From NCBI GenBank assembly GCA_037349105.1, contig JAYJMM010000029.1, forward strand, positions 124,001 through 188,000: a stretch of 64,000 nt of DNA, given 5' to 3'. Made by a program: the position numbers and the translations under genes. Shown in pieces: positions 926 through 43,128 of the stretch. This DNA is from Limnomonas spitsbergensis. Lineage: Eukaryota; Chlorophyta; Chlorophyceae; Chlamydomonadales. Below the pieces are notes generated by a model that made no database searches, was not told the origin of the DNA, and saw nothing but the letters and a program-made list of their open reading frames with translations. The first letter of the stretch is position 1. The number at the start of each line of letters is the position of its first letter.

Positions 926-939
926 TGGCATTGCACACC

Positions 940-2606: not shown

Positions 2607-2681
2607 TAGTGGCACGACACACCACCAACCCACCCACTCACCCACCCACTCACCCACCCACTCACCAACCCACCCACTCAC

Positions 2682-2857
2682 CCGAGCCATGCAATCGGGC
2701 AGCGTGTTAATCCAGCTCAGCACCAAGGGCCTCCACCCCAGCTGATGCGGCTCCAGATACACCATCCCGCAGCGGGACACAGTGGCGGGGGAGGCGACGG
2801 CCAGGTCAGCCACCTCAAAGATCATATTCATGGACGGGCTCATGGATATGATCTCGC
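2682..2857 (-). CDS. Dynein heavy chain exon 32 (AAA2; last exon in window)
   Basis: Encodes [20 protein letters not shown], then [20 protein letters not shown] and [18 protein letters not shown]. Starts phase 1 and ends phase 0 at donor GTGAGTGG. No recognisable downstream dynein exon occurs before base 1. Confidence 0.95.
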
Positions 2858-5800
2858 CTGGGGGGAGAGGGTTCAGGGTGTCAGGATTTAAGGTTTAGGA
2901 TTTTGGGTTGACAATTTCGTGTACAGGGTTCAAGGTGGACAGACCATGGTTAAAGGTTTAGGGTCAAGGGTTTAATGTTTGTATTTGAGGGTTCAATGTT
3001 TTGGTCGAGGGTTGAGGGTTGAGGGTTCAAGGTTGACTTTCGCCCAAGGAGCCAGCAGGAAGCTGCTGTGGCCACAGGGGACACAAGGAGCCAAGCAGGG
3101 CAGGTCATGGTGTCAGGCTTGAACAGCACAGCACACAGTAGCACTCACATCAACAACAGTGTGATGAGCAAAAGTGGTTCAAAATGATCGTCTTCGTCAG
3201 GTCTGAGAGTCAACACAGGACCTTCCTTCTGTAAAAACTACGTCTGTCCCGCTGAGGTCTGCTCTATATGCTCTGAGACAGCATATGCCCCTCATTCTCT
3301 CTCTTTCTTCCTCTCTGCTCTATATTCCCCCCTCTTTCTCTCGTATCCCCTATTTCTCCTCTTTCCCCCACTTTCTCCCTCTCTGCTCTCTCCGTCCCCC
3401 TCTTTTCCCTCTCTTTTCCCCTCGTTCTCCCTCTTTCACACCCGCATCCCCACCCACCTGAGTTGAGGCAGAGCTTTTTGTTGTCGTCGAGCACCGTGTT
3501 CATGTTCTCAATCCAGATGGCGTCCACCGGCCCGTCCAGCACCATCCACTTGCGGTGTGGCAGGGGGTTGCTCGCCACGGCGCGGTACGTCACGGCAAGG
3601 ATGCCATCTGTCCACTCATGAGTGACCGGGTCAAACTGAGGGGGCAGATCCAAGAGGGCAGAGCCAAGGGGTGGGAGGTCTCAGGCAGCTTGAGGTGAGG
3701 GGGGAGAGGTCAGGCAACAAGTGTGATTGTGTCAAACTGAGGGGGCAGATCCAAGAGGGCAGATCCAAGGGGTGGGAGGTCTCAGGCAGCGTGAGGTGAG
3801 GGGGGAGAGGTCAGGCAACATGTGTGATTGGGCCAAACTGAGGGGGCAGATCCAAGAGGGCAGATCCAAAGGTTGCGAGATCTCAGGCAGCATGAGGTGG
3901 GGGCAGATCTAGGGGTGGACTGGCCAGGCAACATGGGGGGGGGGCATAATGAAAGACCTAGGGATACACACACACACATGCGTCACACACACACACACAC
4001 AAACAAACACACAGTACCCTGAACCCCTTAGCACCTGACCGTACAGCTGCCCCATGGTGATTGACTTGGGGTTGATGACGTGGTGCTCCGCCTTGGTCTG
4101 CCCCTCCTCCCCGCGCTGCTCCATGAGAGTCAGCGCCTCAGCCAGCACGCGGTACGAGCAGGTCTTGCCGCTGAACGGCAGGCCCACGATCATCAGACCG
4201 TGACGCACCACAATCATTTCATACAGCTGGATGCTCTGGAAGGAGAGGCGGAGGGTGATGGGGGAGGGGGGGGGGGGGGGCGGAGTTCAAGGGGGGAAGA
4301 GGAGGAGGAGGGAGAGGGGTGGGTGGGAGCGGAGTTCCAGGGGGAGGGAGGATCATGAGGGAGGATTGTGGGGGGGGGAGGGGAGGATGGGGGGTAAGGA
4401 GCACAGGATGATGGACATTTTTATGGGTTGATGGGTGAAAATAGAAAGAGCAGGGGGGGGGGGGGTTACGGAGATCAAGGGGGGCTCGCAGGATAGGAAA
4501 GACGGACGCCATGAGGGGGAGGGTAGGAGGGAGGCTGGATGATGAAGATACTATTGGTAGTAGCGGTAGTAGTAGTAGAGGGAGGGGAGGCAGGGGGGGG
4601 AGTGAGGAGATTTCAGGGTTGGGGGACACTGGGGTATGCCAGCATTGTATTTGGTGTGCTCAAAGGCCTAACCTGCTCTTATATGCTATGGTAAGTGATG
4701 CACCTTTACCTGTTGAAGGGGCCTGCTAAGTAACACTAAGTAACGCTGAGTCACGCTAAGTAACGCTAAGTAACGCTGAGTCACGTTAAGTAACGCTAAG
4801 TAACACTTAAGTAACGCTGAGTCACGCTAAGTAACGCTGAGTAACGCTGAGTCACGCTAAGTAACGCTACGTAACGCTAAGTAACGCTGAGTCACGCTAA
4901 GTAAGGCCCCTTCAACACACATCACAACCTATAAGAAAGAAAAGGAGGAACGTGCTAAAAATTGGGTGCTTGAGAGTCAAGGAAAACAGCGCAGCATGGG
5001 AGGGAACTTCATCCTTGCCGCAACGATTAAGCTTAAGTCCAGCTGACGCTCCCCTGGATTGTGTTCACCCGCGGAGAGTACTGAACCACCTGATGTATCC
5101 TCTTGATGTGTTCTCATCCCGTTAACAGCAATCAAACACTGACCCAGCTGACGCTCGCTCTGGATTGTGTTTACATTTGGTGAAAAACAATAGAGCACTG
5201 CCCCACCTGAAGCTCGCTTTGGATTGGTTAACATTCGAAAAAACAATATTGAGCATTGACCTAGCTGATAACTCGTGCTAGGCTCTGGATTTTCAACTTG
5301 AAAACAAAAAAAACGAGCACTAACCTAGCTGATGCGTGCTCTGGATTGCGAGCTTGTCCATCAAAATAAATGTCATGACGCCCTCACCTTGAGCAGGAAG
5401 TACTCCGTAGGCTGCAGGTTCATCTTGAGGCACACGTCCTCCATGGCCACTTCCATCTTCTTATAGTCGGGCTTGGGCAGGACCACGCCGGGGAACAGGT
5501 CACTGATGATACCCTGAGGTGGGGGGGGGGGGGTCAGGGGTTAGGGTGTAGGGTGTAGGGTATAGGGTAAAGGGTTTAGGGTACTCCCCCCCTAAACCCT
5601 TAACCCGGGAACAGGTCACTAATGATACCCTGAGGTGGGGAAGGGGGACACAGGTCAAAAGAAAAAGATGGAGGAGGGAGGAGGGAGGCACTGGCCAGAA
5701 AAGTGGGATGGCAGAGGGGGGGAGGAGGTAGTGGGACACCTGTCAGAGAGGTGGGAGGGAGGAGGGAGGAGGGTGGGGGAGGCAGGGCAGGGGGGGCTAT

Positions 5801-8800
5801 GACAGTTTGCACATGTTAAGAGTCGAAGGGTAAAGGGTTCAAGGTTCAAGGAACAGAGCTTTCCTGAAACCACGGCGCGTCGTGTGACAGGAGCTTTCAC
5901 AGGTGGGGGGCTAAGGGTTTGGTAATGAAGGGGCAGGGCTTGCCTGGAACAGCGGCACATCGTGAGACAGGAACTTGCAAAGGTCAATGGTTGAGGGATT
6001 GGGGGTTTAGGGTAAAAGGTTTAAGGGGCAGGGCTTGCCTGGAACAGCGGCACATCGTGAGACAGGAACTTGCACAGGTTGACGTCGATGATGGAGCGCA
6101 GCATCAGGACCAGCTCGTTCTGTTCGGGGAAGCGGCGCTTGAGGTTGCCGGCAGCACGCAGGACTGCAATCACGGCACGCATGCCTGCAAAGGGGGGGGG
6201 AGGCAGGCAGAGTGCAAGGGTGAGCCGCAGTCAGAGTGGTCCTGGCTGGACAGCTGCTCCTTCCCCCAATGCACAAACATCACCCACCATCCACCTACCA
6301 TAATCACAGTGATCCTAGCCATACAGCTGCTCCTTATTACAACACATATACATACCCTCCGTCCCTCCCACCACCTACCTTCCAAAGTCAATGTGGTCCC
6401 GGCTGAACAGCTGCTCAATGTCCCAACACCCACCCACCCACACACACACCTCCTATCACCCACAATCATCAAAGTGGTCCTAGCTTAACATCTGCTGCTT
6501 CCCCCAGCACATCAACACGACCTCCCCCAAACCTCCCCAAACCACCACAGCGATCCTATCCAGACAGCTGTTTCCCCTCCCAGCACATACACACCTCCCC
6601 ACACACACCTCAGCTGTCGTGGTCCTGGCTGAACAGCTGCTCGTTCCCTCAATAAACAAACACACACATGTCCCTCCCCCTCCCCCCAGCCACCGTATTC
6701 GTAGTGGTCCTGGCTGAACAGCTGATCGTTCCCTCAATACACAAACACACACAGATGACCCCCCCCTCTCCCCACCCACCGTAGTCATAGTGGTCCTGGC
6801 TGGACAGCTGCTCTGAGCACAGCTTGTAGCACTGCACGATTTTCTTGGAGCACTCGCGCGCAGCCAGGTACCCGTTAGAGTAGAGGATGATCTCACTGAT
6901 CATTGCGTAATCGGGCACCATCATGGCCACTGTGCGGAACAGGGCCTGAGGGGGAACATGCACAGAGGGGGAGGGGTGCAGTCAGTGGGAGGAGCAGACC
7001 AGCAGAGTCGCTTGGAGTCAACGATGATCATGGCATAGTCGGGCACCATGGCCACGGTACGGAACAAGGCCTGAGGGGGAACATGCACAGAGGGGGAGGG
7101 TTGCAGTCAGTGGGAGGAGCAGACCAGCAGAGTCGCTTGGAGTGAACGATGATCATGGCATAGTTGGGCACCATCATGGCCACGGTACGGAACAAGGCCT
7201 GAGTGGGGACATGCACAGAGGGGGAGGGTTGCAGTCAGTGGGAGGAGCAGACCAGCAGAGTCGCTTGGAGTGCACGATGATCATGGCATAGTCGGGCACC
7301 ATCATAGCCACTGTGCAGAACAAGGCCTGAGTGGGAACATGCACAGAGGGGGAGGGGTGCAGTCAGTGGGAGGAGTAGACCAGCAGAGTCGCTTGGAGTG
7401 CACGATGATCATGGCATAGTCGGGCACCATCATGGCCACGGTACGGAACAAGGCCTGAGGGGGAACATGCACAGAGGGGGAGGGTTGCAGTCAGTGGGAG
7501 GAGCAGACCAGCAGAGTCGTTTGGAGTGAACGATGATCATGGCATAGTTGGGCACCATCATGGCCACTGTGCAGAACAAGGCCTGAGGGGGAACATGCAC
7601 AGAGGGGGAGGGTTGCAGTCAGTGGGAGGAGCAGACCAGCAGAGTCGTTTGGAGTGAACGATGATCATGGCATAGTCGGGCACCATCATGGCCACTGTGC
7701 AGAACAAGGCCTGAGAGGGAACATGCACAGAGGGGGAGGGTTGCAGTCAGTGGGAGGAGCAGACCAGCAGAGTCGTTTGGAGTGAACGATGATCATGGCA
7801 TAGTCGGGCACCATCATGGCCACGGTACGGAACAGGGCCTAAAGGGGAGAATTCAGAGGGGGGGATGCTAGCAGTCAGTGGGAGGAGCAGAGCCGTTTTG
7901 AGTGGAGGATGATGTCGCTGATCATTGCGTAGTCGGGCACCATCATGGCCACGGTACGGAACAGGGCCTGAGGGGGGTGCGTGCACATGGGGGAAGGGTT
8001 GCAGTCAGTGGGAAGATCAGACCAGCAGAGCCTTTAAGAGTGGAGGCAGATCTGGCTGATCATTGCGTAGTCAGGCACCATCATGGCCACTGTGCGGAAT
8101 AGGGCCTGAGGGGGGCGCGTGCACAGGGGGGGAGGGGTGCAGTCAGTGGGAGGAGTAGACTAGCGGAGCCATTTTGAGTGGAGGTTGATCTCGCTGATCA
8201 TGGCGTAGTCGGGCACCATCATGGCCACTAAACGGAACAGGGCCTGAAGGGGAGCATGCGAAGGGAGGAGGGGTGCATCCAGTGAGAGGAGCAGAGCCTG
8301 TTGAAGTAGAGGATGATGTCGCGGATCATGGCATAGTCTGGCACCACCATGATGATGGTACAGGACAGGGCCTCAAGGGTGTAAGTTAAGACAGAGGGAG
8401 GGGGGGGGGCAGCAGGGAGGGTGGAAGATGTGGCCTGCTAGGGGAGCAGATACGAGCTGCCCTTACATCCCCTCTGCACACACCCTCTGCACATTGCTCA
8501 CTGATCCAAACTGCCCTCATATCCCCTCTCTCCACACAGCCTCCGCTTCCTGCTCACCTTGGGGTTATCTGTCAGGTCTGACCAGCCCGCATAGCCCCCT
8601 CTCCCCACACGAGCTCCTCACTACACTCAGCTCCCAGCTACCCTCTACTACCCACTACTCCCCACCACTTCCTGCTCACAAAGCCTCACTCTTCTAGAGG
8701 TTGTCAGGCAGATCTACCCCGGCTGCATAGCCCTCTCTCCCCTTATGCGCTCCTCGCTACCCTAAACTTCCCGCTACACTCTGCTCCCCACCACTCCCTG

Positions 8801-11800
8801 CTCTCTGTCCCCGCTCTCCTTGACTTTTCCAGCAGATCCGACCCGCCTGCACATCCCGGGTTCATCGTAATAGTGCTCCACTTGAGCTGCATCTTGGTCC
8901 CCACACCCTCCTTGCTCCTGCTCCTCACTCCCCTTCAGATTGTGAGGGCAGGTCCAACCTGCCTTCACATCCCCTTTCCCCTCACCCTCCTCGCCCCTGC
9001 TCCCCACCACCCTCCGCTCCTCACATGTCCCTGCTCTCTGCTCCCTGCTCACCTTGAGGTTATCAGTCAGGTCTGACCTGTCCCTATATCCCTCTCTCGC
9101 TACACTCAGCTCCCCTGCCCCTTCTGCTCCCCACTACTCCCTGCCCCCCATTCCTCGCTCACCTTAAGGTTGTCCGGCAAGTCCGACCTGCCCGCATACC
9201 CCGGGTTCATCGTGATGGCGCACCATGCACTCCACTTGAGCTGCATCTCGGTCCCCTCAAACACGAACTGCTTGAGCTTGGCCGCGACGGCGCGCTGGAT
9301 GTCCAGCACCTGCTGCGCCACCACGGACAGCACCTGCACGATTTGTAAACATCAGGGTTCAGGGTCCGACATGGGCTGCGCCACCACGGCAATTAATGCC
9401 CACAATATGAAGATTAGGGGTCAGGGTTAAACACCGGCTGCGCCACCACACACATTAGGGGTTTAATACGGGCTGCGACAGACATGACGATCAGGCACCC
9501 CCATCGCATCCATCTACCTCCAGATAAAGGCTGTTAGGGCTTAGGGTTGAGGTGACCCCTAAAACGTCATATCTTGTACCGCTCACCTCCAGGTTGATGC
9601 GGTTGAACTCGTCGAAGCACGCCCAGGCGCCGCTGGAGGCCAGGCCCTTAAAGAACTTGGCCATGGCCAGGTAGTCCAGAGAGTCGGAGCAGTTGAAGAC
9701 GACACACTGCGGGTGGCAAACAGGTTGCGGGGGGACAGGACGTCGTGGATGTGCGCAGCAGAGGGGTAGGACGGGTTGGGGGGAGGGGCAGGTTGGGGGG
9801 GGGGTCAAGTTGGGGGGGGCAGGTTGGGAGGAGGCAGGTGGGGGGGGGGCAGGTCTAAAAGCTTGGCCGCGGCGGGGAAGTCCAGGGAGTCGGGCAGTTG
9901 AAGACGACACAGTAGGGAGCAATGAGGTCAGGGGTGAAGATTTTTGTCAGCAAAGGAAAAAACGGCCACGGCTTAATGGGAGATCAGGGGAACATGAGGC
10001 AGTTCAGGGGATCAGGAAGCAGTACATGGGATCATTAGGCAGCACAGGGGATCAGGAAGCAGTACAGGCACAAATCCAGGAGGCAGTGCAGCGGATCAGG
10101 AGACAATGTAACGATGACAGGAAGTGAATAGCGTCACCGACCGTCCATCAGCACCATGTGTGCACATGGAAAAGAGGACAGGACAATGCTCTCCCCGCCT
10201 GCTCCCCGCCTGCTCCTTGCCTGCTCCCCGCCTGCTCCCCGCCTGCTCCCCGCCTGCTCCCCGCCTGCACCCCGCCTGCTCCCCGTCTGCTCCCCGCCTG
10301 CTCCCCGTCTGCTCCACGTCTGCTCCCCGTCTGCTCCCCGTCTGCTCCCCGTCTGCTTCCCGCCTGCTCCCCTAACCCCGCCCGCGTCTTGCCCCCTCCC
10401 GCTCCCCGCTCCTCGCCCGCTCCCCTAACCCCGCCCGCCTCTTGCCTCCTGTCGCTCCCCGCTCCCCGCCTGCTCCCCGCCTGCTCCCCTAACCCCGCCC
10501 GCCTCTTGCCCCCTCCCGCTCCCCGCTCCTCGCCCGCTCCTCGCCTGCTCCCCGCCTGCTCCCCCAACCCCGCCCGCCTCTTGCCTCCTCCCGCTCCCCG
10601 CTCCTCGCCGCCCCCCGCCTGCTCCCCGCCTGCTCCCCTAACCCCGCCCGCCTCTTGCCCCCTCCCGCTCCCCGCTCCTCGCCCGCTCCTCGCCTGCGCC
10701 CCGCCTGCTCCCCTAACCCCGCCCGCCTCCTGCCCCCTCCCCGCTCCTCACCTGCTCATTGCCCTCCCCCTCCCAGCTCCCCGTTCCCCACCTGCTGCCC
10801 ACTTCTTGCTACCCACTCCTTGCTGCCCACTCCTTACTACCCACTCCCCGCTTACTCCCCACTCCCTGCCCGCTCCTGCACCTGTCTTGCCAGCGCCTTG
10901 GCGAGGTCTTTGGTGGTTTCCGTCTTCCCAGTCCCAGCAGGACCCTCCGGGGCTCCTCCCAGGGTCAAGTGGATGGCCCCCATCAGCGTGCGGTAACACC
11001 TGAGTGGAACGGATACATGGCTCTGTCAAAGATCCCACACGAGTTCATACAATTATACACAGGGTCGAGTGGATAGCCCCCATCAGCGAGCGGTAACACC
11101 TGAGTGGAACGGATACATTACTCTTTCAAAGCAGCTGCATGGATTCATAGGGTGATGCACAGGGTCAAGTGGATGGCCCCCATCAATGTGCGGTAACACC
11201 CGAGTGGGGCGAATGCATGGTTCTGTTAAAGCTGCCACACGGATTCATACAATTACGCAAAGGGTCAAAAGTGGAGGGACCCCATCAGCGTGCGGAGTGC
11301 GTCCAGTGCGGACACATTACTTTGTCACAGATGCTGCTGCATGGATTTATGTAAATATGTAGAGGGTCAGTGGATGGCCTCAATCCACATCCACATCCAC
11401 ACCCGCGTGTGGAACGGACGCGTGATTCTGCCACAGCTGCTGCAAACATCCACAACAAAGTGTTGCGGCACACTACGTTGTTTTAATACAACCATCAGCC
11501 CCAGCTCTCCATCCCCCTCTCTTCAGCCCCCCTGCTGCACCCCCCTGCCAGAATCGCCCCAACCTTGCTGCTTCCTTACCTGTCCTGCGCCCCTCCCTAA
11601 TGCCCCCCTCCTGTCCAAAGCCGCACCCCCCTGCTGCCCTCACCCCCCTGCCCCAAGCGCCCCCCCTACTGCCCCCTTCCCACCTGTCCGTCAGTGGTGT
11701 GATGACCAGCCGGCTGCTGTTGCCCAGGTACTCATAGCCATACTGAATGGTGGCGGACATCATGCGCATCATCACCGTGGAGCTGCGCTCGCCGTTGGGG

Positions 11801-14800
11801 TCCTCCTCCCAGTAGGACCGCAGCTGGGCCGTCCATTCGAAATCATTGTCATTTCGCACGTCCTGGAGGAGACGGGGGTTGAGGATCATGCCAGAGGGTG
11901 TGGATCATGCCGGAGGGTATGGATTATGCCGGAGGGTGTGCATCATGCCGGAGGGTGTGGATCATGCCGGAGGGTGTGGATCATGCCGGAGGGTGGATCA
12001 TGCCGGAGGGCGTGAATCATGCCAGAGGGTGTGGATCATGCCGGAGGGTGGATCATGCCGGAGGGCGTGGATCATGCCAGAGGGTGTGGATCATGCCGGA
12101 GGGTGTGGATCATGCCGGAGGGCGTAAATCATGCCAGAGGGTGTGAATCATGCCGGAGGGTGTGGATCATGCCGGAGGGTGGATCTTGCCGGAGGGTGTG
12201 GATCATGCCGGAGGGCGTGGATCATGCCAGAGGGTGTGGATCATGCCGGAGGGTGGATCTTGCCGGAGGGTGTGGATCATGCCGGAGGGTGTGGATCATG
12301 CCGGAGGGCGTGGATCATGCCAGAGGGCGTGGATCATGCCGGAGGGTGGATCATGCCGGAGGGCGTGGATCATGCCAGAGGGTGTGGATCATGCCGGAGG
12401 GTGTGGATCATGCCGGAGGGCGTAAATCATGCCAGAGGGTGTGAATCATGCCGGAGGGTGTGGATCATGCCGGAGGGTGGATCTTGCCGGAGGGTGTGGA
12501 TCATGCCGGAGGGCGTGGATCATGCCAGAGGGTGTGGATCATGCCGGAGGGTGGATCTTGCCGGAGGGTGTGGATCATGCCGGAGGGTGTGGATCATGCC
12601 GGAGGGCGTGGATCATGCCAGAGGGTGTGGATCATGCTGGAGGGTGGATCTTGCCGGAGGGTGTGGATCATGCCGGAGGGTGTGGATCATGCTGGAGGGT
12701 GTGGATCATGCCAGGGTTTGTGGATCATGTCTGGGCAGAGATTAAGCAGGCCACGAAGGTTTGCATAGGTAGTACACATCCCACCCAGCAGCCCTCCCCC
12801 CTTTGCTGCTACCACTGCCACCACGTCGCGTGCGTGGACATCCATCACCACCAACGCCTACCAGCCCACCAGCCACTGCCAGCCACCACCAGCAACCAGC
12901 ACACCAGCCCACCAACCACCTCACCTTTGCTGCCAGCACCGCTACCACATCGCGTGCGTGGACGTCCATCACCACCAGTGCCCCCAGGGTGGCGCGCTGC
13001 AGCCCCGTCAGCTCGCCCCGCACAAGGTCCACAATGCGCAGCAGGTCTGATGTACACTTGTGCTCATAAGCAGCCACCGTGTTGGCCTTAATGGCGGCAG
13101 TCACATCTGTAAGGTTTGCGCGGGAGGTCAAGGGGGGTCATGGGGTGTGGGTGATGGAGGGCAGGGACGAAGAGAGAAGTCTGCAGCCGTCTTCCTCCCT
13201 ACACTCCACTTCAGGGAAACGGCGCGGATGTGGCTATAGCCCCAAGCTGCGCTGCATCCTTGACCTTCACGCCCCAATAGGGTGTCGCTTTCTTTCTTAC
13301 TTCACACTCCACTCCACATACTCACCTCTGCCGTGCCTAAACCCTCCTCAGCCCTCTAGCTCTCACCGCGGGTCCAGAAGATGGCCCCGTGGCAACCAGC
13401 ACCACCGTGCTTACACCCACCCTCTAAAGCAGGAGTAGCCCCCTTCCCCTCCTTGCCAGGGCCCCATACTTGGCCCATACCTACCCGGGAACAGCTGCAC
13501 CTAAAGCAGGTTGGTCGTGTGCCTTTCCTGTTCCTGTTCGCCTTAACTCAGCTGTCCACGAGGGCCCCTTGCGCACACGGGCTGTTTTGTTGTGTTAGCA
13601 TTCCAGGTTTCTAGGGTTGGGCGGCCGGTCTCACACCTTGTTAAGTCCAAAGAAAAGAAATAGCAGCAGCAACCCTCAATTCGAGTCCAGAAAATTAGCC
13701 GTAGCAACCAGGACCACCATCCCTGGCCACTCCACACCATCAGCCCTTCTTCACCCCCTTGCCGGGATCTGTGTCTAACACACCCTTTTAGCATCCTCCC
13801 AGCCATGCAATCCCCTCGAATCTAGAAGATGGCCGTGACAACCAGCACCACCATCCCTGGCCACTCCACACCATTCGAAACAAGTCACCTATCCCAGCCT
13901 AAGTCGACAACTTTTGCAAGGAATTGCCCGCAACTCGAGTCCAGAAGATGGCCGTGACGACCAGCACCACCATGCCCGGCCACTCCAACACCATTCCTAA
14001 TAAGTCTCCTACCCTAGCCTAAGCCTACAAGTTCTGCAGGGAATTGTCCGCACCTCGAGTCCAGAAGATGGCCGTAACAACCAGCACCACCATGCCCGGC
14101 CACTCCAGCACCCACTCGTTGCGCGGCTTCCCCGCATAGGCCTCGATGCCTCGGCCCGTCACGTCGTGGATGGCGTCAAACATGCCGCCCTCGACCTCCA
14201 GCAGCCACTTTTCAACTGAGCCGCGGGCCTGAGAGAAGAGGGAGGAGGGGGGCACTGTTCATTTGTGCCTGCCCAATGTTGCAGCGACTTTTCAACTGAG
14301 CCGCGGGCCTGCGGGTAGGACGGGGGGGACGGGGGTACTGTTCATTTGTGCGTATTGGTAGCGTCTGCCCAGTGTTGCAGCCACTTCAAACATGCCGCCC
14401 TCGACCTCCATCAGCCAATTTTCAACTGAGCCGCGGGCCTGAGAGAGAACAGCATGGGGGAGGGTCATGTCCGATATAGGGGTGAGTCAGACAGCAGCCA
14501 CTTTTCAGCTGAGCCGCGGGCCTGAGAGAAGAGCGGGGGACGGGGGCACTGTTCATTTGTGCGTATTGGCAGCCTCTGCCCAGTGTTGCAGCCACCTCTC
14601 CACTGAGCCGCGGGCTTGCAAGAGAAGAGCAGGGGAGGGTCGTGTCCAATATAGGGGTGGATCAGGGCATGCGGAACAGGGGCAGGACAAAGAGCCCTAG
14701 CGCATAAGACCTTTTCTAGGCCTTGGGGGTCAAGATATGTGCTACCACCAGACGTTGTTGTGTTTGTACCCATGGTGCTACCACCATACGTTGTTGTGTT

Positions 14801-29800: not shown

Positions 29801-32800
29801 CTACTACCCTCCTCCTCCCCATTCCTTGGGCACGGCCATGTCCTACTACCCTCCTCCTCCCCATTCCTTGGGCAAGGCCATGTCCTACTACCCTCCTCCT
29901 CCCCATTCCTTGGGCACGACCATGTCCTACTACCCTCCTCCTCCCCATTCCTTGGGCACGGCCATGTCCTACTGCCCTCCTCCTCCCCATCCCTTAGGCA
30001 AGGCCATGTCCTACTACCCTCCTCCTCCCCATTCCTTGGGCACGGCCATGTCCTACCACCCTCCTCCTCCCCATTCCTTGGGCACGACCATGTCCTACTA
30101 CCCTCCTCCTCCCCATTCCTTGGGCACGACCATGTCCTACTACCCTCCTCCTCCCCATTCCTTGGGCACGGCCATGTCCTACTGCCCTCCTCCTCCCCAT
30201 TCCTTGAGCACGACCATGTCCTACTACCCTCCTCCTCCCCATTCCTTGGGCACGACCATGTCCTACTACACTCCTCCTCCCCATTCCTTAGGCAAGGCCA
30301 TGTCCTACTACCCTCCTCCTCCCCATTCCTTGGGCACGGCCATGTCCTACCACCCTCCTCCTCCCCATCCCTTAGGCAAGGCCATGTCCTACTACCCTCC
30401 TCCTCCCCATTCCTTGGGCACGACCATGTCCTACTACCCTCCTCCTCCCCATTCCTTGAGCACGACCATGTCCTACTACACTCCTCCTCCCCATCCCTTA
30501 GGCAAGGCCATGTCCTACTACCCTCCTCCTCCCCATTCCTTGGGCACGACCATGTCCTACCACCCTCCTCCTCCCCATTCCTTGGGCACGGCCATGTCCT
30601 GCCACCCTCCTCCTCCCCATTCCTTGGGCACGACCATGTCCTACTACCCTCCTCCTCCCCATCCCTTAGGCAAGGCCATGTCCTACTACCCTCCTCCTCC
30701 CCATTCCTTGGGCACGGCCATGTCCTACCACCCTCCTCCTCCCCATCCCTTGGGCACGACCATGTCCTACTACCCTCCTCCTCCCCATCCCTTGGGCACG
30801 ACCATGTCCTACTACCCTCCTCCTCCCCATTCCTTGAGCACGACCATGTCCTACTACACTCCTCCTCCCCATCCCTTGGGCAAGGCCATGTCCTACTACC
30901 CTCCTCCTCCCCATTCCTTGGGCACGACCATGTCCTACTACCCTCCTCCTCCCCATTCCTTGGGCACGGCCATGTCCTACTACCCTCCTCCTCCCCATTC
31001 CTTGGGCACGACCATGTCCTACTACCCTCCTCCTCCCCATTCCTTGGGCACGGCCATGTCCTACTACCCTCCTCCTCCCCATTCCTTGGGCACGACCATG
31101 TCCTACTGCCCTCCTCCTCCCCATTCCTTGGGCACGACCATGTCCTACTACCCTCCTCCTCCCCATTCCTTGGGCACGGCCATGTCCTACCACCCTCCTC
31201 CTCCCCATTCCTTGGGCACGGCCATGTCCTACTGCCCTCCTCGTAATTGCTTACTAAAATACAACCGTTTCCATCTATTAAACCTGCTAGCCATTGAATA
31301 AAATAACTTCCATTTGTGTTGAATAGGGGGCGTGCGGCCTTTAAGGTTTCTACTCATCTCTTAAAGATAGCTCACACCCCCTCTCTCACTTGAGCATGAC
31401 CATGTCCTGGCGGAACTTGGTGACGTCCCTCTCCTCCTGCTGGTAGGCATAGGAGTCGTACGAGAAGCAGAAGTCGTTAATGGGGCGCAGCTCCTCGTAG
31501 CGCTCAACAGAGGCCTGGGCGCTGCTGTAGGAGGTCGCTATGGCTGAGCCGCAGCTGATCCTGCAGATGGGATCAGCAGTTGAAGAGAGTGGGTCAGCAG
31601 TCACAAAGAGAGGATCAGAAAGAACAGAGAGAAGATCAGCAGTCACAGAAAGGGAGTCAGCAGTCACAGAGAGGGGAGAAGCAGGCACAGAGAGGGGATC
31701 AGCAGGCACAGAAAAGGGAGGGGGGGGCATAGCTGAGCATGCATGGGAATTCAGCTCTCAGTCATGCTCTCCCATGCAAAAGCGGCAGCCCCCTGCGGCC
31801 ATCTCCTTGCTGCCCACCAGACAAATAATTCAAGCCTCAAGCCAAAGGATCAAGAAACCCTCCCCGTTTGCCCACAGCGCTCTGCCTGTCCCACCTGGCC
31901 TTGTTGAGCGGCTTGTATCCCAGGATGAGCTGCGTCATGTCCTGGCCCCGCAGGCCCTCCACCAGCTGCTTGAAGGCCTCGCAGGACAGCAGCCGCGGGA
32001 AGCTACGTACCAGCTGCAGCAGGGCGTCCACCATCTCCATGGCAATCACCTAGGGTTCAGGGTTCAGGGTTCAGGGTTCAGGGTTCAGGGTTCAGGGTTC
32101 AGGGTTCAGGGTTCAGGGTTCAGGGTTCAGGGTTCAGGGTTCAGGGTTCAGGGTTAAAGGTTCAGGGTTTCAGGTTCAGGGTCCTTGGCAATGGCGAGCG
32201 GGCAACCCCTTGTGATTTGCACTAGGGCTGAACACACAGCAGACAGGACTGAGGGGCCAGGGCGGGTGGAGGCTCTTCAGCAGCCCCCCCTGCCCCCCTC
32301 ACACAGTCACGCACACACACCACCTCGATGATTCCATGACAGGTATGGGGGTGGGAGGGGCATCCCCCCAGGGGTCAGAGCGTCAGACAGTGATCATAAA
32401 TCAGGGAAGCCGGGACGAGAAAGTAACTTCGGTTCTGTGCTTGCTCCGCCACCCAGTACCGCTCTCTTTTTGAGCCCCGGAAAGAAAAACGCAGCAGACG
32501 GAGCCACAGCAATCCGTTTGCCTCCCACTCCTACCCTCACCTGGCGCGCCTCCTCCTCGTTGGCGTTAAAGTTCATGCCTGTCTCCGAGAAGGACAGCTG
32601 CGCAAGTATGACAGGCTGGGTCTCCATGGTGGCTCGGAAGTTATCTATAACCGACACCAGCATGTCTAACGCCCCCTCCACCAACATGTAGTCAGCCAGG
32701 CGGACGACGTTAGGGAGCAGACTCACATCCTGGGGGAAGGGGGCAGGAGGTGAAGTAGGGGGGGGGCATTTTCAATCACTGACACCAGCATGTCCAGCGC

Positions 32801-35800
32801 CCCCTCCACCAACATGTAGTCAGCCAGGCGGACGACGTTGGGGAGCAGGCTCACGTCCTGAGGGAAGGGGGCAGGAGCAGGAAGGGGCTCACGTGAATGT
32901 GGGTGGGTGAACGTGTGAGTGGGCGTGTAGGCGTGCATGTGTGAGCGTGTGGGCGTGAATGTGTGAGCGTGGATGTTTGGGTGTGAATGTGTGGGTGTAT
33001 GGGTGTGAATGTGTGGGTGTGAATGTGAGAGCGTGCATGTCTGGGCGTGAATGTGTGGGCGTATGGGTGTGAATGTGTGGGTTTGAATGTGTGGGCGTGC
33101 ATGTCTGGGTGTGAATGTGTGGGCGTATGGGTGTGAATGTGTGGGTGTGAATGTCTGGGTTTGAATGTGTGGGTGTGAATGTGTGGGTGTGAATGTGTGG
33201 GCGTGCATGTTTGGGTGTGAATGCGTGGGCGTGTGGGTGTGATTGTGTGGGTGTGAATGTGTGAGCGTGCATGTCTGGGCGTGAATGTGTGGGCGTATAG
33301 GTGTGAATGTGTGGGTTTGAATGTGTGGGCGTGCATGTCTGGGTGTGAATGTGTGGGCATATGGGTGTGAATGTGTGGGTGTGAATGTGTGGGCGTGCAT
33401 GTTTGGGTGTGAATGTGTGGGCGTGTGGGTGTGGGTGTGCATGTGTGGGCGTGAATGTGTGGGCGTATGGGTGTGAATGTGTGGGTGTGAATGTGTGGGC
33501 GTGCATGTTTCAGTGGGATTGTGTGGGCGTGTTGGTGTGGGTGAGCATGTGGGGGCGGAGGATGCACATAGGACCTCAGCGCCCTTGTCTGCTCAAGCGT
33601 CACTGCCTAGATGCCGCATGGCCTGCGATTGTGAATGTGTGGGAGTGCAAGTGCGAGCGTGAGGGGTGAATGTGTGGGAGGGTGAATGTGAGGGGGGTGA
33701 ATGTGTGCGAGTGCGAGCGTGAGGGGGAATGTGTGGGAGGGCGAATGTGTGGTGGTGAATGTTTGGGAGGGTGAATGTGTGGGAGGGCGAATGTATGGGA
33801 GGGCGAATGTATGGGAGGGCGAATGTGTGGGAGGGCGAATGTATGGGAGGGCGAATGTATGGGAGGGCGAATGTATGGGAGGGCGAATGTGTGGGAGGGC
33901 GAATGTATGGGAGGGCGAATGTATGGGAGGGCGAATGTGTGGGAGGGTGAATGTGTGGGAGGGTGAATGCGTGGGAGGATGAATGTATGGGAGGGCGAAT
34001 GTGTGGGAGGGCGAATGTATGGGAGGGCGAATGTATGGGAGGGCGAATGTGTGGGAGGGTGAATGTGTGGGAGGGTGAATGCGTGGGAGGATGAATGTAT
34101 GGGAGGGCGAATGTGTGGGAGGGTGAATGTGTGGGAGGGTGAATGCGTGGGAGGATGAATGTATGGGAGGGCGAATGTGTGGGAGGGTGAATGAGTGGAA
34201 GGATGAATGTGTGGGAGGGCGAATGTATGGGAGGGCGAATGTATGGGAGGGCAAATGTGTGAGAGGGCGAATGTGTGGGAGGGCGAATGTGTGGGAGGGT
34301 GAATGTGTGGGAGGGTGAATGTATGGGAGGGCGAATGTGTGGGAGGGTGAATGCGTGGGAGGATGAATGTATGGGAGGGCGAATGTGTGGGAGGGTGAAT
34401 GTGTGGGAGGGTGAATGTGTGGGAGGGTGAATGTATGGGAGGGCGAATGTGTGGGAGGGTGAATGTGTGGGAGGGTGAATGTGTGGGAGGGTGAATGTGT
34501 GGGAGGGTGAATGCGTGGGAGGATGAATGTGTGGGAGGGCGAATGTGTGGGAGGGTGAATGTGTGGGAGGGTGAATGCGTGGGAGGATGAATGTATGGGA
34601 GGGCGAATGTGTGGGAGGGTGAATGTGTGGGAGGGCGAATGTGTGGAAGGGTGAATGTGTGGGTAGTGAATGACTTAATGTGTGCGTGGGGGCGCGTGGG
34701 CGATCTCGGAGGATGCATGCACACCTGCACTGCAGACCTCAGCGCCCTCGTCCGCTCCAGCTTCTCCGTCTTGACGCGGACCAGATTCTTGGCGCCAGGC
34801 CGCATCGGGGCGCCCACCGTGGACAGGCCGGACGAGGCGCCCAGCCCCTGCTGGCCGGTGTCCCGCTCGCCCTCCTCCACCTCGCGGCGCAGGGACGCCT
34901 CGGCCTTCTTGACGTCCGTGATGAGACGCGTGACGGAGCGCTCCATGCCGTGGACTGCGGCGGAGATGCTGGGCATGGCGCGGTTCCTGCGGGGCGGAGC
35001 ACAGGGAGGAGTGCTGCGGTTTAGTGTTTAGTGTTCAGGGTTTAGGGTTTAAGGTTTAGGGTTCATCCGCATTGCCTCTCCTCGGGTATGGCATGCATTG
35101 ATTGTTTCTTCTCTTGCGGTCCTCGGGGCCACGCGGCCGAAAATCGGCCAAAGCTCTGGATTCCTGACTGCAAACTGACATCGACGAGCGAAAGATACCT
35201 TGTTTGTTGAAGTCCCTCACCATTATCTACATTAATTATGAGAAATGTCAAAGCACACACAAAAAGTAAGGGTTGTGGGTTCAGGGTTAAACGTACGCGC
35301 AGTCCATCGCCCGGCTCCCCCCACGGCCCTCTGCCCCTCTATCGCCCCCGAGGCCCCCGCCTACATCACCCGGTTCATCCCCAGCCCCCATTCACTTGCT
35401 CCCACAGCCCACTCACTTTCTCACATCCTCCTGCTCTCTGCTGAACTCTCACTTGTATCCCCGGCCCCCGCTTTCATCACCCGGTACCCCCCCAGCCCCC
35501 ACTCAGACTATCCTATAACTCTCTAACATCTGCACATTCTACTGCTCTGTGCTGAACTTTCACTTGCCCCCTAGGCCCCCAGCCCCTCTCAGTCCCCCTT
35601 TTCACGCCCCACCCCCCCTCACAGGTGCGCATCATCCTGCTCTCTGCCTAACTCTCACTCACCCCCTACACCCCCAGGCCCCTTCATGCTCCCCCCCAGA
35701 TCCCCCTCTCCCATGCACCCCTCTCACATGCCCCGTATATACCCCCTGACCCTCTCACTTCCCCAATGCCCCCCTCTCCCATGCCTTCCTCTCCCATGCC

Positions 35801-38800
35801 TTCCTCTCCCATGCCCCCCTCTCCCATGCCTTCCTCTCCCATGCCCCCCTCTCCCTTGCCCCCCTCTCACATGCCCCGTATATACCCCCTGACCCTCTTA
35901 CTTCCCCAATGCCCCCCTCTCCCATGCCTTCCTCTCCCATGCCCCCCTCTCCCTTGCACCCCTCTCACATGCCCCGTATATACCACCTGACCCTCTCACT
36001 TCCCCAATGCCCCCCACTCCCATGCCTTCCTCTCCCATGCCCCCCTCTCCCTTGCGCCCCTCTCACATGCCCCATATATACCACCTGACCCTCTCACTTC
36101 CCCAATGCCCCCCTCTCCCATGCCTTCCTCTCCCATGCCCCCCTCTCCCTTGCACCCCTCTCACATGCCCCGTATATACCACCTGACCCTCTCACTTCCC
36201 CAATGCCCCCCACTCCCATGCCTTCCTCTCCCATGCCCCTCTCTCCCTTGCACCCATCTCACTTCCCCCATGCCCCCCTCTCCCATGCCACCCTCTCCCA
36301 TGCCCCCCTTACACTTCCCCCATGCCCCCCTCTCCCATGCCCCCCTCTCCCATGTCCCCCTCACCCATGCCCCCCTCTCCCACGCCCCCCTCTCCCATGT
36401 CCGCCTCACCCATGCCCACCTCTCCCATGCCCCTCCCTCCCACGCCCCCTTCTCCCATGCCCACCTCTCCCATGCCCCCTTCTCTCATGCCCCCCTCTCC
36501 CATGCCCCACACTACCATGCCCCACACTCCCATGCCCCCCTGTCCCATGCCCCTCCCTCCCATGCCCCCGTCTTCCATGCCCCACTCTCCAATGCCCCAC
36601 TCTCCCTTGTCCCACTCTCCCATGCCCCACTCTCCCACGCCCCACTCTCCCATGCCCCCCTCTCCCATGTCCCCCTCTCCCATGCCCTACACTCCCATGG
36701 CCCCCTCTCCCATGCCCCCCTCTCCCATGACCCCTGCTCCCATGCCCCACTCTCCCATGTCCCAGTCTCCCATGCCCCACTCTCCCATGCCCCACTCTCC
36801 CATGCCCCTCCCTCCCATGCCCCCGTCTCCCATGCCCCCCTCTCCCATGCCCCCCTCTCCCATGCCCCACTCTCCCATGCCCCCTGCTCCCATGCCCCAC
36901 ACTCCCATGCCCCACTCTCCCATGCCCCCCTCTCCCATGCCCCCCTCTCCCATACCCCCTGCTCCCTTGCCCCACTCTCCCATGCCCCCCACTCCCATGC
37001 CCCACTCTCACATGCCCCCCTCTCCTATGCCCCACACTCCCATGCCCCCCTCTCCTATGCCCCCCTCTGCCATGCCCCTTATTCCCATGCCCCCTTCTCC
37101 CATGGCCCCCTCTCCCATGCCCCCTGCTCCCATGCCCCCCTCTCCCATGTCCCAGTCTCCCATGCCCCCCTCTCCCATGCCCCCCTCTCACTTGCGCACA
37201 TCCTCCTGCTCCCGGCTAAACTCCGTCAGCATGGGCGACTTGGCATTGACCTCAATCAGCTTGATCTGTTTGAGGTCGTGCAGCTTTGAGTGGATGTCCA
37301 TGAGGCTGTAGCAGAAGTCAGGCTTGGCCATCAGCAACCGACCCTCAAGGCTTTTACGGATCTGCGTGGGTAATTGGGGGGGTACCAGTGTAGAGTTAAA
37401 GGTGATGGAGTGGATGTCCATGAGGCTGTAGCAGAAGTCAGGCTTGGCCATCAGCAACCGATCCTCAAGGCTCTTACGGATCTGCGTGGGTAATTGGGGG
37501 GGTACCAGTGTAGTGTTGAAGGTGATGGAGTGGATGTCCATGAGGCTGTAGCAGAAGTCAGGCTTGGCCATCAGCAACCGATCCTCAAGGCTCTTACGGA
37601 TCTGCGTGGGTAATTGGGGGGGTACCAGTGTAGAGTTAAAGGTGATGGAGTGGATGTCCATGAGGCTGTAGCAGAAGTCAGGCTTGGCCATCAGCAACCG
37701 ATCCTCAAGGCTCTTACGGATCTGCGTGGGTAATTGGGGGGGTACCAGTGTAGAGTTAAAGGTGATGGAGTGGATGTCCATGAGGCTGTAGCAGAAGTCA
37801 GGCTTGGCCATCAGCAACCGATCCTCAAGGCTCTTACGGATCTGCGTGGGTAATTGGGGGGGTACCAGTGTAGAGTTAAAGGTGATGGAGTGGATGTCCA
37901 TGAGGCTGTAGCAGAAGTCAGGCTTGGCCATCAGCAACCGATCCTCAAGGCTCTTACGGATCTGCATGGGTAATTGGGGGGGTACCAGTGTAGAGTTAAA
38001 GGTGATGGAGTGGATGTCCATGAGGCTGTAGCAGAAGTCAGGCTTGGCCATCAGCAACCGATCCTCAAGGCTCTTACGGATCTGCGTGGGTAATTGGGGG
38101 GGTACCAGTGTAGAGGTAAAGGTGATGGAGTGGATGTCCATGAGGCTGTAGCAGAAGTCAGGCTTGGCCATCAGCAACCGATCCTCAAGGCTCTTACGGA
38201 TCTGCGTGGGTAATTGGGGGGGTACCAGTGTAGAGTTAAAGGTGATGGAGTGGATGCCCATGAGGCTGTAGCAGAAGTCAGGCTTGGCCATCAGCAACAG
38301 ATCCTCAAGGCTCTTACGGATCTGCATGGGTAATTGGGGGGGTACCAGTGTAGAGTTAAAGGTGATGGAGTGGATGTCCATGAGGCTGTAGCAGAAGTCA
38401 GGCTTGGCCATCAGCAACCGATCCTCAAGGCTCTTACGGATCTGCGTGGGTAATTGGGGGGGTACCAGTGTAGAGGTAAAGGTGATGGAGTGGATGTCCA
38501 TGAGGCTGTAGCAGAAGTCAGGCTTGGCCATCAGCAACCGATCCTCAAGGCTCTTACGGATCTGCGTGGGTAATTGGGGGGCTACCAGTGTAGAGTTAAA
38601 GGTGATGGAGTGGATGTCCATGAGGCTGTAGCAGAAGTCAGGCTTGGCCATCAGCAACCGATCCTCAAGGCTCTTACGGATCTGCGTGGGTAATTGGGGT
38701 TCAGATATTAGGGTGATGGATTGGATGCTCATTAGGCTGTACATGAAGAAAGGCTTTGCAATCAGCAGCCAGCCCTCAAGGCCCTTACGGATCTGTCATG

Positions 38801-41800
38801 ATTGAGAACAATTAGTAAAATCCGGGCGGTCAACATAATCACACTGTTCGGGAAACCGGACACAAAACAACACGTCTCCGGCTCTGTGTGGGTAATTGGG
38901 TGGGTAACAGTGAAGTGTCAAGGGTGACGGATTGCTGTCCATGAGGCTGTAGCAGTAGTAAGATCTGGCCATCAGCAGAGAACCCTCACGGCTCTTGCGG
39001 ATCTGTGTGGGTTCGGGGTTTGAGGTATAGGGTTCAGGGTTGAGGACTTCTTGTTCTTGATGTAGGCAAGTAGTTAGGATGACCGCATGCTGCTGCGGAG
39101 CGAGTGGCTCCCAACCCCTCACGCCACCACACATCCGCCCTGACCCATCACCTGAGAAGCCGTCGCCTTCGCCACATTCCCCCACAAACACAGGAAGCGC
39201 AGTACCATGTGCTTGCACAAGATAAGCATATTTAGGGGATACCTTGTTGGTCATTATATACCCCCCCCCTACCCCCCCCCCTACCCCCCCCCCTACCTCA
39301 CCCCCCTACCCCCCCCCCCCTACCCCCCCCCTACCCCGCCCCTACCCCTCCCCCTACCCTACCCCCTACCTCCTACCCCCCCCCTACCCCACCCCACCCC
39401 CTACCCCGCCCCTACCCCACCCCACCCACCCCCCTACCCCACCCCCCTACCCCACCCCTACCCCACCCCCACCCCCCCACCCTCCCCTACCCTGCCCCTA
39501 CCCCTACCCCACCAGCAAAAAATCGCAAGCCACAGCCCCTACCCTACCCCACCCCACACCACCCCAGCCTACCCCACCAGCCAAAAGGAGCCACAGCCCC
39601 CCCACGCCGCACCCTTTGGAAGGCCTGCGCCTTGGCGGCGTTCCTCCACGAGCGCAGGAAGCGCAGCGCCATGTAGTTGCGGAAGAAGCGCAGCTGCTTC
39701 ATCATGTTGAACACGCTGTGCTCGCGCACCCATTCACCGATGGGCGTGAAGTCCGCGGGGGCGCCCGATTGGAACATCTGGGGGGGGGGGGACAAGCGGA
39801 AGGCGGGTATGTGTGTGTGTGTGTGCGTGTGCACGGACAGGGATGACGCGTGCTGGCGCTGGCGCTGCCGGCCCCCTTCTTGAGTTTGAAGGCCTGCACT
39901 GGCCTCGACCCCTGAACGCCCAGGGGCCTTCCCTAGTTCCCTTCCTACGTCACATTTCTCCATCATGCTTCCTCCGTCTTTTTACACACTCAAAACATGA
40001 CAACGGCCCGGTGATCTCTCTCAGCATAAGTACATCATCCCTTTGTGATGGGATTTAGCCAATATAACATTACTTGTGGACGACCCGCCATTGAGCTGCC
40101 GCACATGCCATCAGAGGTCCCCCCCTGTGCAACATAAGATTGTGCACACCGGGCCTGCCAACATGTGGACGACCCGCCATTGAGCTGCTGCACATGCCAT
40201 CAGAGGTCCCCCCCTGTGCAACATAAGATTGTGCACACCGGGCCTGCCAACTTGTCGACGACCCGCCATTGAGCTGCTGCACATGCCATCAGAGGTCCCC
40301 CACTGTGCAACATAAGATTGTGCACACCGGGCCTGCCAACTTGTGGACGACCCGCCATTGAGCTGCTGCACATGCCATCAGAGGTCCCCCCCTGTGCAAC
40401 ATAAGACTTTGCACACCGGGCCTGCCAACATGTGGACGACCCGCCATTGAGCTGCTGCACATGCCATCAAAGTTCCCCCCTGTGCAACATAAGACTGTGC
40501 ACACCGGGCCTGTTAACCCCGTTTCCCACTCAAGTGAAACCCAGACCTTCCTCCCAGTCCCCGCTTCCCACTCAAGTGAAACCCAGCTCTTCCTCCCAGT
40601 CCCCGCTTCCCACTCAAGTGAAACTCAGCCCTTCCTCCCAGTCCCCGCTTCCCACTCAAGTGAAACTCAGACCTTCCTCCCAGTCCCCGTTTCCCACTCA
40701 AGTGAAACCCAGCCCTTCCTCCCAGTCCCCGCTTCCCACTCAAGTGAAACTCAGCCCTTCCTCCCAGTCCCCGCTTCCCACTCAAGTGAAACTCAGCCCT
40801 TCCTCCCAGTCCCCGCTTCCCACTCAAGTGAAACTCAGCCCTTCCTCCCAGTCCCCGCTTCCCACTCAAGTGAAACTCAGCCCTTCCTCCCAGTCCCCGT
40901 TTCCCACTCAAGTGAAACTCAGCCCTTCCTCCCAGTCCCCGCTTCCCACTCAAGTGAAACCCAGCCCTTCCTCCCAGTCCCCGCTTCCCACTCAAGTGAA
41001 ACTCAGCCCTTCCTCCCAGTCCCCGCTTCCCACTCAAGTGAAACTCAGCCCTTCCTCCCAGTCCCCGCTTCCCACTCAAGTGAAACTCAGCCCTTCCTCC
41101 CAGTCCCCGTTTCCCACTCAAGTGAAACCCAGCCCTTCCTCCCAGTCCCTGCTTCCCACTCAAGTGAAACTCAGCCCTTCCTCCCAGTCCCCGCAGCCCG
41201 CTCACCTCAACCACCCCAGCCGAAGTCATGGTGAAGTAATCTCCTCTCAGATTCTCCTTGGCTGCAACCACAAGCTCGTACGGGCAGTCCATGCCGGGGA
41301 TATTGGCACGCACGCAGTGAAACATCTTGACACGAGCCTCGCGGCCGTACGTGGCAAAGTAACAGACAACATCCATACCCTGAGAATGGTGTTATGGTTG
41401 TCAGTGGCTGTCTATGGCAAAGTAACAGACAACATCCATACCCTGAGAATGGTGTCATGGTTGTCAGTGGCTGTCTATGGCAAAGTAACAGACAACGTCC
41501 ATACCCTGAGAATGGTGTTATGGTTGTCAGTGGCTGTACATGGCAAAGTAACAGAGAACGTCCATACCCTGAGAATGGTGTTATGGTTGTAAGTGGCCGT
41601 ACATGGCAAAGTAACAGACAACATCCATACCCTGACTATGATTGTCAGTGTTTATCTAAGGTTGCTTCAGTTGCGTTTATGCTACAGTCCGGCTTGCGGC
41701 AGGCAGGGCTTGGTGCAGCTAGCCCTGTTGTTTGGGTCACTGGCCATAGGGCGTTCAAGGTTTCGCTGGCGGAAAGGAAAGGGGGGGTCTTCAGCCCATG

Positions 41801-43128: not shown

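What the first reader, a model, noticed from the sequence alone, without database searches (positions are those of the whole stretch)
2682..43128. Introns built from tandem copies of their own exon edges
At 20 or more of the 32 dynein exons the neighbouring intron repeat contains part of that exon. Acceptor-side repeats contain the acceptor plus the exon's first 10-90 bp. Donor-side repeats contain the exon's last 10-100 bp plus the donor. The copies are specific to the adjacent exon, so the repeats were born in place by duplications across the splice junction, not inserted. Intron growth by splice-junction-spanning tandem duplication would leave the mRNA unchanged as long as the outermost site is used. 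Duplication of AGGT-containing segments is a known route to new introns. A gene where nearly every intron shows repeated junction duplication is, as far as I know, not described as a general system.
Basis: partly seen in the sequence, partly recalled or inferred. Interest (0 to 1): 0.95.

Follow-up and report, generated by a model that had tools for sequence, protein, structure and literature searches.

The report
Introns grown by duplicated splice junctions
In a green alga that is probably a snow alga, many introns have lengthened because short stretches spanning an exon edge were copied in tandem, leaving introns full of strong decoy splice sites that the cell apparently ignores.

Summary
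The gene is a dynein heavy chain with 32 exons here (43128..2682, minus strand). Of 63 exon edges, 27 (21 of 32 exons) have a copy in their own flanking intron; 0 of 1,891 comparisons with non-flanking introns and 0 of 62 with the opposite flanking intron do. Whole-exon blastn finds copies at 33 edges of 24 exons. Two units searched genome-wide form arrays only in their own intron.

A close paralog (C75) with matching exons has its own copies at 12 of 59 edges. Copies carry the states of their own gene's exon (614:108 and 86:14), so most arose after the gene split. Non-dynein DNA shows the same: 16 of 52 edges, 0 of 1,256 controls. It is not a dynein system.

Best reading: frequent short tandem duplications, tolerated across a junction because the outermost sites keep being used. 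Copied sites that survive are as strong as real ones, which points to exon definition; no transcript was seen. Evidence that junctions are preferred targets is weak.

Tandem duplication is a known route to new introns; as a general way of lengthening old ones I found no report in ten searches.

The parts
2682..43128 (-). dynein heavy chain gene, exons 1-32 (tail to the AAA2 region; domain names recalled); continues left of the window
41415..41661 (-). E3 acceptor-side copies (63-bp unit, up to 37 exon bp)
39164..39222 (-). E4 donor-side copy (59 exon bp, ends 15 bp from the edge)
37408..39012 (-). E5 acceptor-side array, 120-bp unit, 12 crossing copies, up to 74 exon bp; 11 of 12 open and in frame with E5
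35408..36888 (-). E5 donor-side copies in degenerate arrays (up to 32 exon bp)
33442..33614 (-). E6 donor-side copy (53 exon bp, 68%)
32769..32877 (-). E7 acceptor-side copy (89 exon bp, 91%)
29153..31146 (-). matches of the E9 donor edge in a 42-bp x 50 array (19 exon bp; weak)
27001..27442 (-). E10 acceptor-side copies (24 exon bp)
26315..26611 (-). E10 donor-side copies (up to 36 exon bp)
26020..26169 (-). E11 acceptor-side copy (28 exon bp, 100% in the exon part)
25156..25664 (-). E11 donor-side 38-bp array (9 exon bp; weak), holds CCCTAAA repeats
24761..25165 (-). E12 acceptor-side copies (up to 87 exon bp)
23925..24485 (-). E12 donor-side copies, 140-bp unit (up to 65 exon bp)
22716..23203 (-). 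E13 acceptor-side copies (up to 66 exon bp)
21731..22362 (-). E13 donor-side copies (36 exon bp)
21239..21360 (-). E14 acceptor-side copy, 120-bp unit (59 exon bp)
20741..20968 (-). E14 donor-side copies (up to 56 exon bp)
17339..17426 (-). E17 donor-side copies (26 exon bp)
17311..17326 (-). E18 acceptor-side match (16 exon bp; weak)
16734..16863 (-). E19 acceptor-side copies (up to 50 exon bp)
15280..15399 (-). E20 acceptor-side copy (72 exon bp)
14876..14919 (-). E20 donor-side copy (35 exon bp)
14281..14639 (-). E21 acceptor-side copies (up to 53 exon bp)
13369..13992 (-). E21 donor-side copies, 120-bp unit (up to 59 exon bp)
12784..12853 (-). E22 donor-side copy (53 exon bp)
11060..11385 (-). 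E24 acceptor-side copies, ~100-bp unit (up to 40 exon bp)
9862..9911 (-). E25 acceptor-side copy (51 exon bp)
9375..9449 (-). E26 acceptor-side copies (18 exon bp; weak) in intron 25
8538..9092 (-). E26 donor-side copies (up to 97 exon bp)
7025..8379 (-). E27 acceptor-side array, 128-bp unit, 11 crossing copies, 49-75 exon bp
6222..6727 (-). E27 donor-side copies, 85-bp unit (34 exon bp)
5828..5984 (-). E28 donor-side copies (41 exon bp)
5604..5647 (-). E29 acceptor-side copy (26 exon bp)
3723..3903 (-). E31 acceptor-side copies, 101-bp unit (14-19 exon bp; weak)
820..2613 (-). E32 donor-side copies (up to 105 exon bp)
62187..62416 (-). same pattern in a neighbouring gene (my reading of the translation: a cation/H+ antiporter; no family search was run): donor-side copies, 66-bp unit

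Best explanation
The introns lengthened through recurrent tandem duplication, in place, of short segments (mostly about 40-170 bp). When such a segment straddles a splice junction, the intron gains a copy holding the splice site plus the adjoining end of the exon. Some copies then multiplied into arrays, while others decayed. The change is tolerated because the outermost pair of sites still flanks the intact exon, so the mRNA is unchanged. The process is not confined to this gene. Shown: locality, orientation, anchoring at the edge, origin of most copies after the paralog split, occurrence in other genes sampled. Inferred: use of the outermost sites, which rests on homology and not on transcripts; that the spliceosome picks them by exon definition (pairing the nearest sites across the exon); that most copies are neutral; that duplications fall roughly at random; and that the process still runs, from near-identical copies.
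For: Own-intron matches at 27 of 63 edges; 0 of 1,891 in non-flanking introns; 0 of 62 in the opposite intron. 114 of 122 matches are direct and end within 12 bp of the edge facing the intron. Two units searched in the 260-Mb assembly form arrays only in their own intron; the other hits (1 and 3) are the exonic part at other loci that hold dynein matches (that search skips simple repeats). Paralog C75: 12 of 59 edges, 0 of 1,653 elsewhere, 0 opposite. Seven edges are hit in both genes, against 5.5 expected. Copies match their own gene's exon over the paralog's 614:108 and 86:14, pooled over copies; by edge 27:3 and 14:0. Other dyneins; non-dynein DNA, 16 of 52 edges, 0 of 52 opposite, 0 of 1,256 elsewhere. 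Among copies with at least 15 exon bp, 46 of 50 keep AG and 24 of 36 keep GT; those that do score like true sites: median 9.4 against 10.8 for acceptors, 10.1 against 9.7 for donors, intron background -10.4 and -3.0. First intact acceptor copies are a multiple of three from the exon at 5 of 16 edges, about the chance rate. 31 of 45 repeat families in 31 introns include at least 6 exon bp; 3 do with swapped exons.
Against: No transcript was seen, so use of the outermost sites is inferred. Eleven of the twelve intact E5 acceptor copies are open and in frame with E5, so inclusion in mRNA is possible there. A third of donor copies have lost their GT (12 of 36), so not all decoys are strong. A few edges do not look younger than the paralog split (E7acc 6:7, E27acc 31:26, E5don 2:3, E20acc 1:2). 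A predicted age gradient away from the exon was not significant (p = 0.06, and 0.50 without the two longest arrays). Volvox and Chlamydomonas introns have been argued to be spliced by intron definition (PMC4378016, passages), which would pick the innermost sites. In the other dyneins the ab initio exons were not checked one by one.
Confidence: 0.82

Rival explanations
1. Junction-directed duplication: something tied to the splice junction or to transcription makes exon edges hot spots for tandem duplication, beyond what random placement and selection give.
For: Junction-crossing families (at least 20 exon bp) are 27 of 45 against 41% expected (p = 0.008) in this gene, and 14 of 25 against 39% (p = 0.06) in the paralog.
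Against: The expectation depends on an assumed ancestral intron length (present unique sequence). Families that include a conserved exon end should stay detectable longer than purely intronic ones, and nearby families merge. Purely intronic families also occur (14 of 45, or 18 of 45 at the stricter cut).
Confidence: 0.15
2. Assembly artefact: long-read mis-assembly multiplied exon edges.
For: The presumed assembly was built from continuous long reads and polished (PMC11228838, passages and part of the results read), and I could not see reads. Some E5 copies are 100% identical to each other.
Against: The 104 crossing copies align to their parent edges at 66-99% identity, so most are not fresh repeats of one read, and they are specific to their junction. 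The paralog on another contig shows its own set. The published read L50 of 33 kb is far above array length.
Confidence: 0.03
3. Copies are functional alternatives: backup or regulatory splice sites, or repeats that are included in the protein.
For: Surviving copied sites are strong. The E5 array is open and in frame over 11 copies.
Against: Frame is at chance (5 of 16 first acceptor copies) and 0 of 31 intact donor copies are in frame and open. Splice dinucleotides are kept about as often as exon identity predicts (48 of 53 against 43; 31 of 46 against 33). Exon lengths match the paralog, which lacks copies (score >=20) at 20 of the 27 edges.
Confidence: 0.07
4. Introner-like or transposon insertions carrying splice sites spread among introns.
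For: Many introns carry similar-looking structures.
Against: Edge matches are specific to their junction: 0 of 1,891 cross-intron matches, and the two units tested have no dispersed copies in 260 Mb at the sensitivity of that search.
Confidence: 0.01

Closest known systems
Intron gain by tandem genomic duplication (AGGT model; PMC3443670 and PMC2891723, passages read; PMC4974935 and PMC2809761, search listing only)
   Same: A short tandem duplication that includes splice-site sequence, with the protein left unchanged.
   Different: There, a new intron forms inside an exon from an AGGT motif. Here, existing introns lengthen: the duplicated segment straddles an existing junction, and 29 of 30 testable introns are shared with a paralog.
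Intronic minisatellites / VNTRs (definition recalled)
   Same: Head-to-tail arrays of units of tens to hundreds of bp, with near-identical neighbours.
   Different: Units hold exon ends and often intact splice sites, and are seeded separately at many junctions of a gene.
Satellite-containing gigantic introns of Drosophila kl-3 and kl-5 (PMC6508621, title and start of abstract in search listing; that these are Y-linked axonemal dynein genes is recalled)
   Same: Axonemal dynein genes with introns swollen by tandem repeats.
   Different: Megabase scale and satellite DNA; repeats derived from each exon's own edge are not mentioned in what I saw.
Introner-like elements (PMC4457414, search listing)
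   Same: Many introns of a genome shaped by repeated sequence.
   Different: Introners multiply among introns; here each repeat tested belongs to one junction only.

Membership tests
Intron gain by tandem genomic duplication | duplicated segment contains splice-site sequence and lies in tandem | tested here: met
Intron gain by tandem genomic duplication | the event creates a new intron at a previously unbroken exonic site | tested here: not met
   29 of 30 testable introns (introns 2-31, all but intron 25) are at the same place in paralog C75, and most copies postdate the paralog split
Minisatellite arrays | head-to-tail repeats with units of about 10-100+ bp | tested here: met
   (136 rows over the window, some describing the same array)
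Minisatellite arrays | copy-number variation among individuals | not testable with these tools
   one assembly only
Introner-like elements | similar copies in many introns of different genes | tested here: not met
   63 edges against the introns of this gene; two units against the genome
Exonised / protein-coding repeats | array open and in frame with the exon | tested here: not met
   13 of 48 acceptor copies (11 of them at E5) and 0 of 31 donor copies; met at E5 only as an array
Exon-definition splicing | outermost sites (shortest exon) chosen over equally strong inner sites in transcripts | not tested
   exon ends set by homology; transcripts not available here

The most novel reading that the evidence does not exclude
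In this alga, splice-junction-spanning tandem duplication is a main genome-wide engine of intron lengthening, with some bias towards junctions. It has filled introns with decoy splice sites as strong as the real ones. The genes survive only because the spliceosome pairs sites across exons, so the genome holds thousands of natural tests of exon against intron definition.
Probability: 0.3. Interest if true: 0.82.

Novelty: new variant of a known kind. Interest (0 to 1): 0.66.

Why it matters
How introns lengthen is usually credited to transposons and small insertions (recalled). Here 44-47% of the intron DNA of a 40-kb gene belongs to repeat families that include an exon end, and 15-28% in its paralog; the same mark appears in unrelated genes. 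Because most duplicated acceptors and two thirds of duplicated donors stay intact and score like true sites, each case is a natural test of how a spliceosome chooses between equal sites. Full-length transcripts were made for what is very probably this species (PMC11228838), so the question is directly testable. The pattern also warns gene annotators: my own exon finder called many copies as exons.

Tried and rejected
Age gradient: copies nearer the exon were not significantly younger. Frame selection: none. Selection against decoys: none visible overall. Microhomology at duplication ends: 218 tandem duplications or arrays with units of 40-400 bp were found in the fetched stretches and window. 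The 153 two-copy cases gave a mixed distribution, many with G or C runs, from which I draw nothing. Protein database search with the draft protein gave 4 hits at 20-34% identity, none named as algal, so the species was inferred from assembly statistics instead. Chaperonin genes were meant as a further non-dynein sample, but the search was busy six times and then returned places without DNA. A RuBisCO search for species identification was busy and not repeated. Literature: ten searches showed no report of general intron lengthening by junction duplication in the listings; the library lacks most subscription papers. Exons 1 and 6 were left out of the paralog state test (not found; length differs). 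In one search, the C29-left count (19 of 35) includes two edges of a repeat copy taken for an exon, which also gives both opposite-side hits, and the exon-32 donor already counted; without them it is 16 of 32.

Full report
What the window is. The sequence is eukaryotic and lies at C29:124001-188000 of an assembly of 260,226,709 bp in 124 contigs. The published genome of the Arctic snow alga Limnomonas spitsbergensis has 260,248,090 bp in 124 contigs (PMC11228838; outline, 12 of 22 passages and part 1 of 2 of the results read). The sizes differ by 21 kb. I take the species to be very probably that one; this is inference. Its paper gives a mean intron of 788 bp. Two papers give 270 (the column cited to Merchant et al. 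2008, which I take as Chlamydomonas reinhardtii) and 371-373 bp for Chlamydomonas (PMC5966456; PMC4378016; passages). What I read of the genome paper does not mention repeats built from exon edges.

The gene. A codon-based exon finder plus homology gave 32 exons from 43128 to 2682 on the minus strand, 5,217 bp without a stop. The second part of the protein aligns almost gaplessly with chain 8glv_Me (1,811 bits); the tail aligns in pieces. The listing calls that chain an AAA+ ATPase domain protein; other hits are axonemal dyneins. That 8glv is a Chlamydomonas axoneme, that the chain is an inner-arm dynein, and the AAA1, AAA2 and AAA4 labels are recalled. The gene continues left of the window. 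The finder also called many array copies as exons; I removed these by hand, keeping the copy contiguous with the rest of the exon.

The observation. I compared the first and last 60 bp of each exon with the introns of the gene. 27 of 63 edges (15 acceptor, 12 donor) score >=20 against their own intron. 0 of 1,891 comparisons with non-flanking introns do (maximum 15.5), and 0 of 62 with the opposite flanking intron (maximum 14). Twenty-one exons are involved. Whole exons against adjacent introns by blastn gave 122 matches: 119 direct, 114 direct and ending within 12 bp of the edge facing that intron, in 33 edges of 24 exons counting one that ends 15 bp away. With intron flank included, 33 edges have copies that cross the junction with 6-105 exon bases, 28 of them with at least 20. 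The longest clean arrays are E5 acceptor (120 bp, 12 copies) and E27 acceptor (128 bp, 11 copies).

Not inserted. The E5 and E27 units were searched in the whole genome (2 of the units). All array copies lie in or at the edge of their own intron. The other hits, 1 and 3, cover the exonic part only and lie at loci that hold dynein matches. That search skips simple repeats and gives lower bounds.

A natural replicate. One such locus, C75:604001-644000, is a close paralog. 31 of the 32 exons were found (exon 1 was not). Of exons 3-32, 29 of 30 have the same length (exon 6 differs by 12 bp). Ends were set by homology and phase and then checked by splice dinucleotides; exon 2's start was imposed and lacks an AG; intron 25 is absent. 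Fourfold-degenerate sites differ at 256 of 657 (39%). Of its 59 testable edges, 12 have own-intron copies, with 0 of 1,653 elsewhere and none opposite. Seven edges are hit in both genes, against 5.5 expected (p = 0.26), so the overlap is about chance. Where the two exons differ, copies in C29 carry the C29 state 614 times and the C75 state 108 times (40 neither); in C75 it is 86 to 14 (10 neither). These pool copies of one array; by edge it is 27 to 3 (2 ties) and 14 to 0 (1 tie). So most copies arose after the genes split, independently. E7 and E27 acceptor copies, 6:7 and 31:26, may be older. The 29 shared introns total 34.4 kb in C29 and 18.2 kb in C75.

How general. With exons from the ab initio finder (not checked one by one), the rest of the C29 gene gave 19 of 35 edges, or 16 of 32 after removing a repeat copy taken for an exon and the exon-32 donor counted before. 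Other dyneins gave C86 4 of 80, C109 4 of 77, C22 10 of 69, C123 10 of 69 and the right part of C75 1 of 22; 0 of 7,656 sampled comparisons with other flanks reached the threshold. The only two opposite-side hits, both in C29-left, come from that repeat copy. Non-dynein DNA (the window right of 43.3 kb with 20 kb beyond it, and three 10-kb stretches picked without regard to content, one of which had no usable exon) gave 16 of 52 edges, 0 of 52 opposite, 0 of 1,256 elsewhere. This includes a gene at 61-64 kb that I read as an antiporter. The intensity varies, and this gene is at the high end. Five dynein loci besides C29 and 50 kb of other fetched DNA are a small sample of 260 Mb.

Is the junction a target? 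I grouped self-matches in each intron with its exons into families. In C29, 31 of 45 families include at least 6 exon bp (27 of 45 with at least 20). Swapping exons between introns gives 3 (0 in C75). Random placement in introns of the present unique length predicts 44% (41%). The excess (p = 0.008 for 27 of 45; 0.06 for 14 of 25 in C75) is modest and depends on the assumed ancestral length and on better survival of exon-derived similarity. I do not claim targeting.

Splicing. Copied splice dinucleotides are kept about as often as exon identity predicts: acceptors 48 of 53 (43 expected), donors 31 of 46 (33 expected). Scored with a matrix from 60 true acceptors and 62 true donors, copies with at least 15 exon bp that keep their dinucleotide (46 of 50 and 24 of 36) are as strong as true sites and far above intron background; the matrix includes the parent sites, which favours copies slightly. 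At 13 of 28 edges some copy scores at least as high as its true site. First intact acceptor copies lie a multiple of three from the exon at 5 of 16 edges, and 0 of 31 donor copies are in frame and open, so the frame is not selected. Correct mRNA needs the last acceptor and the first donor, which is the shortest exon. Pairing across the exon would choose these on both sides, and pairing across the intron would choose the inner ones. The anatomy therefore points to exon definition. One paper argues for intron definition in Volvox and Chlamydomonas, whose introns are shorter (PMC4378016, passages). This step is inference and needs transcripts.

What is known. Tandem genomic duplication is described as a route to new introns, shown in vivo (PMC3443670, PMC2891723; passages). 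Satellite-containing giant introns occur in Drosophila kl-3 and kl-5 (PMC6508621, listing). I found no report of junction-spanning duplication as a general mode of lengthening existing introns in ten searches of an open-licence library (listed in Tried and rejected). I file it as a new variant of a known kind.

Noticed in passing
25188-25688 and scattered: Telomere-like CCCTAAA repeats: 23 matches to two units (up to 1 mismatch) in the window, 0.01 expected; 10 of the 23 lie in the intron 11 array.
   Followed up: partly
37191-38795: The E5 acceptor array and exon 5 form one open frame of 535 codons, so inclusion in some mRNA is conceivable.
   Followed up: partly
9334-9586: Intron 25 is absent from paralog C75, where exons 25 and 26 are contiguous; breaks between domain matches at the same place in C22 and C34 suggest loss in C75.
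   Followed up: partly
6037-6038: The donor after exon 28 reads GC (GC-AG intron) in this gene and GT in the paralog.
   Followed up: no
939-2508: A CACT microsatellite of about 388 units in the intron after exon 32.
   Followed up: no
C29:94001-124000 (L009-L011): Left of the window the exon finder called 13 further copies of one exon end and 16 (plus a partial one) of what reads as the next exon's start.
   Followed up: partly
L036 (C123:1000001-1010000): A stretch with no usable exon that holds many duplicated 62-67 bp units with poly-C runs.
   Followed up: no
29134-31242: The 42-bp x 50 array of intron 9 looks by eye like a decayed copy of the exon 9 donor edge; the donor GT seems to read GG in the unit.
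   Followed up: partly
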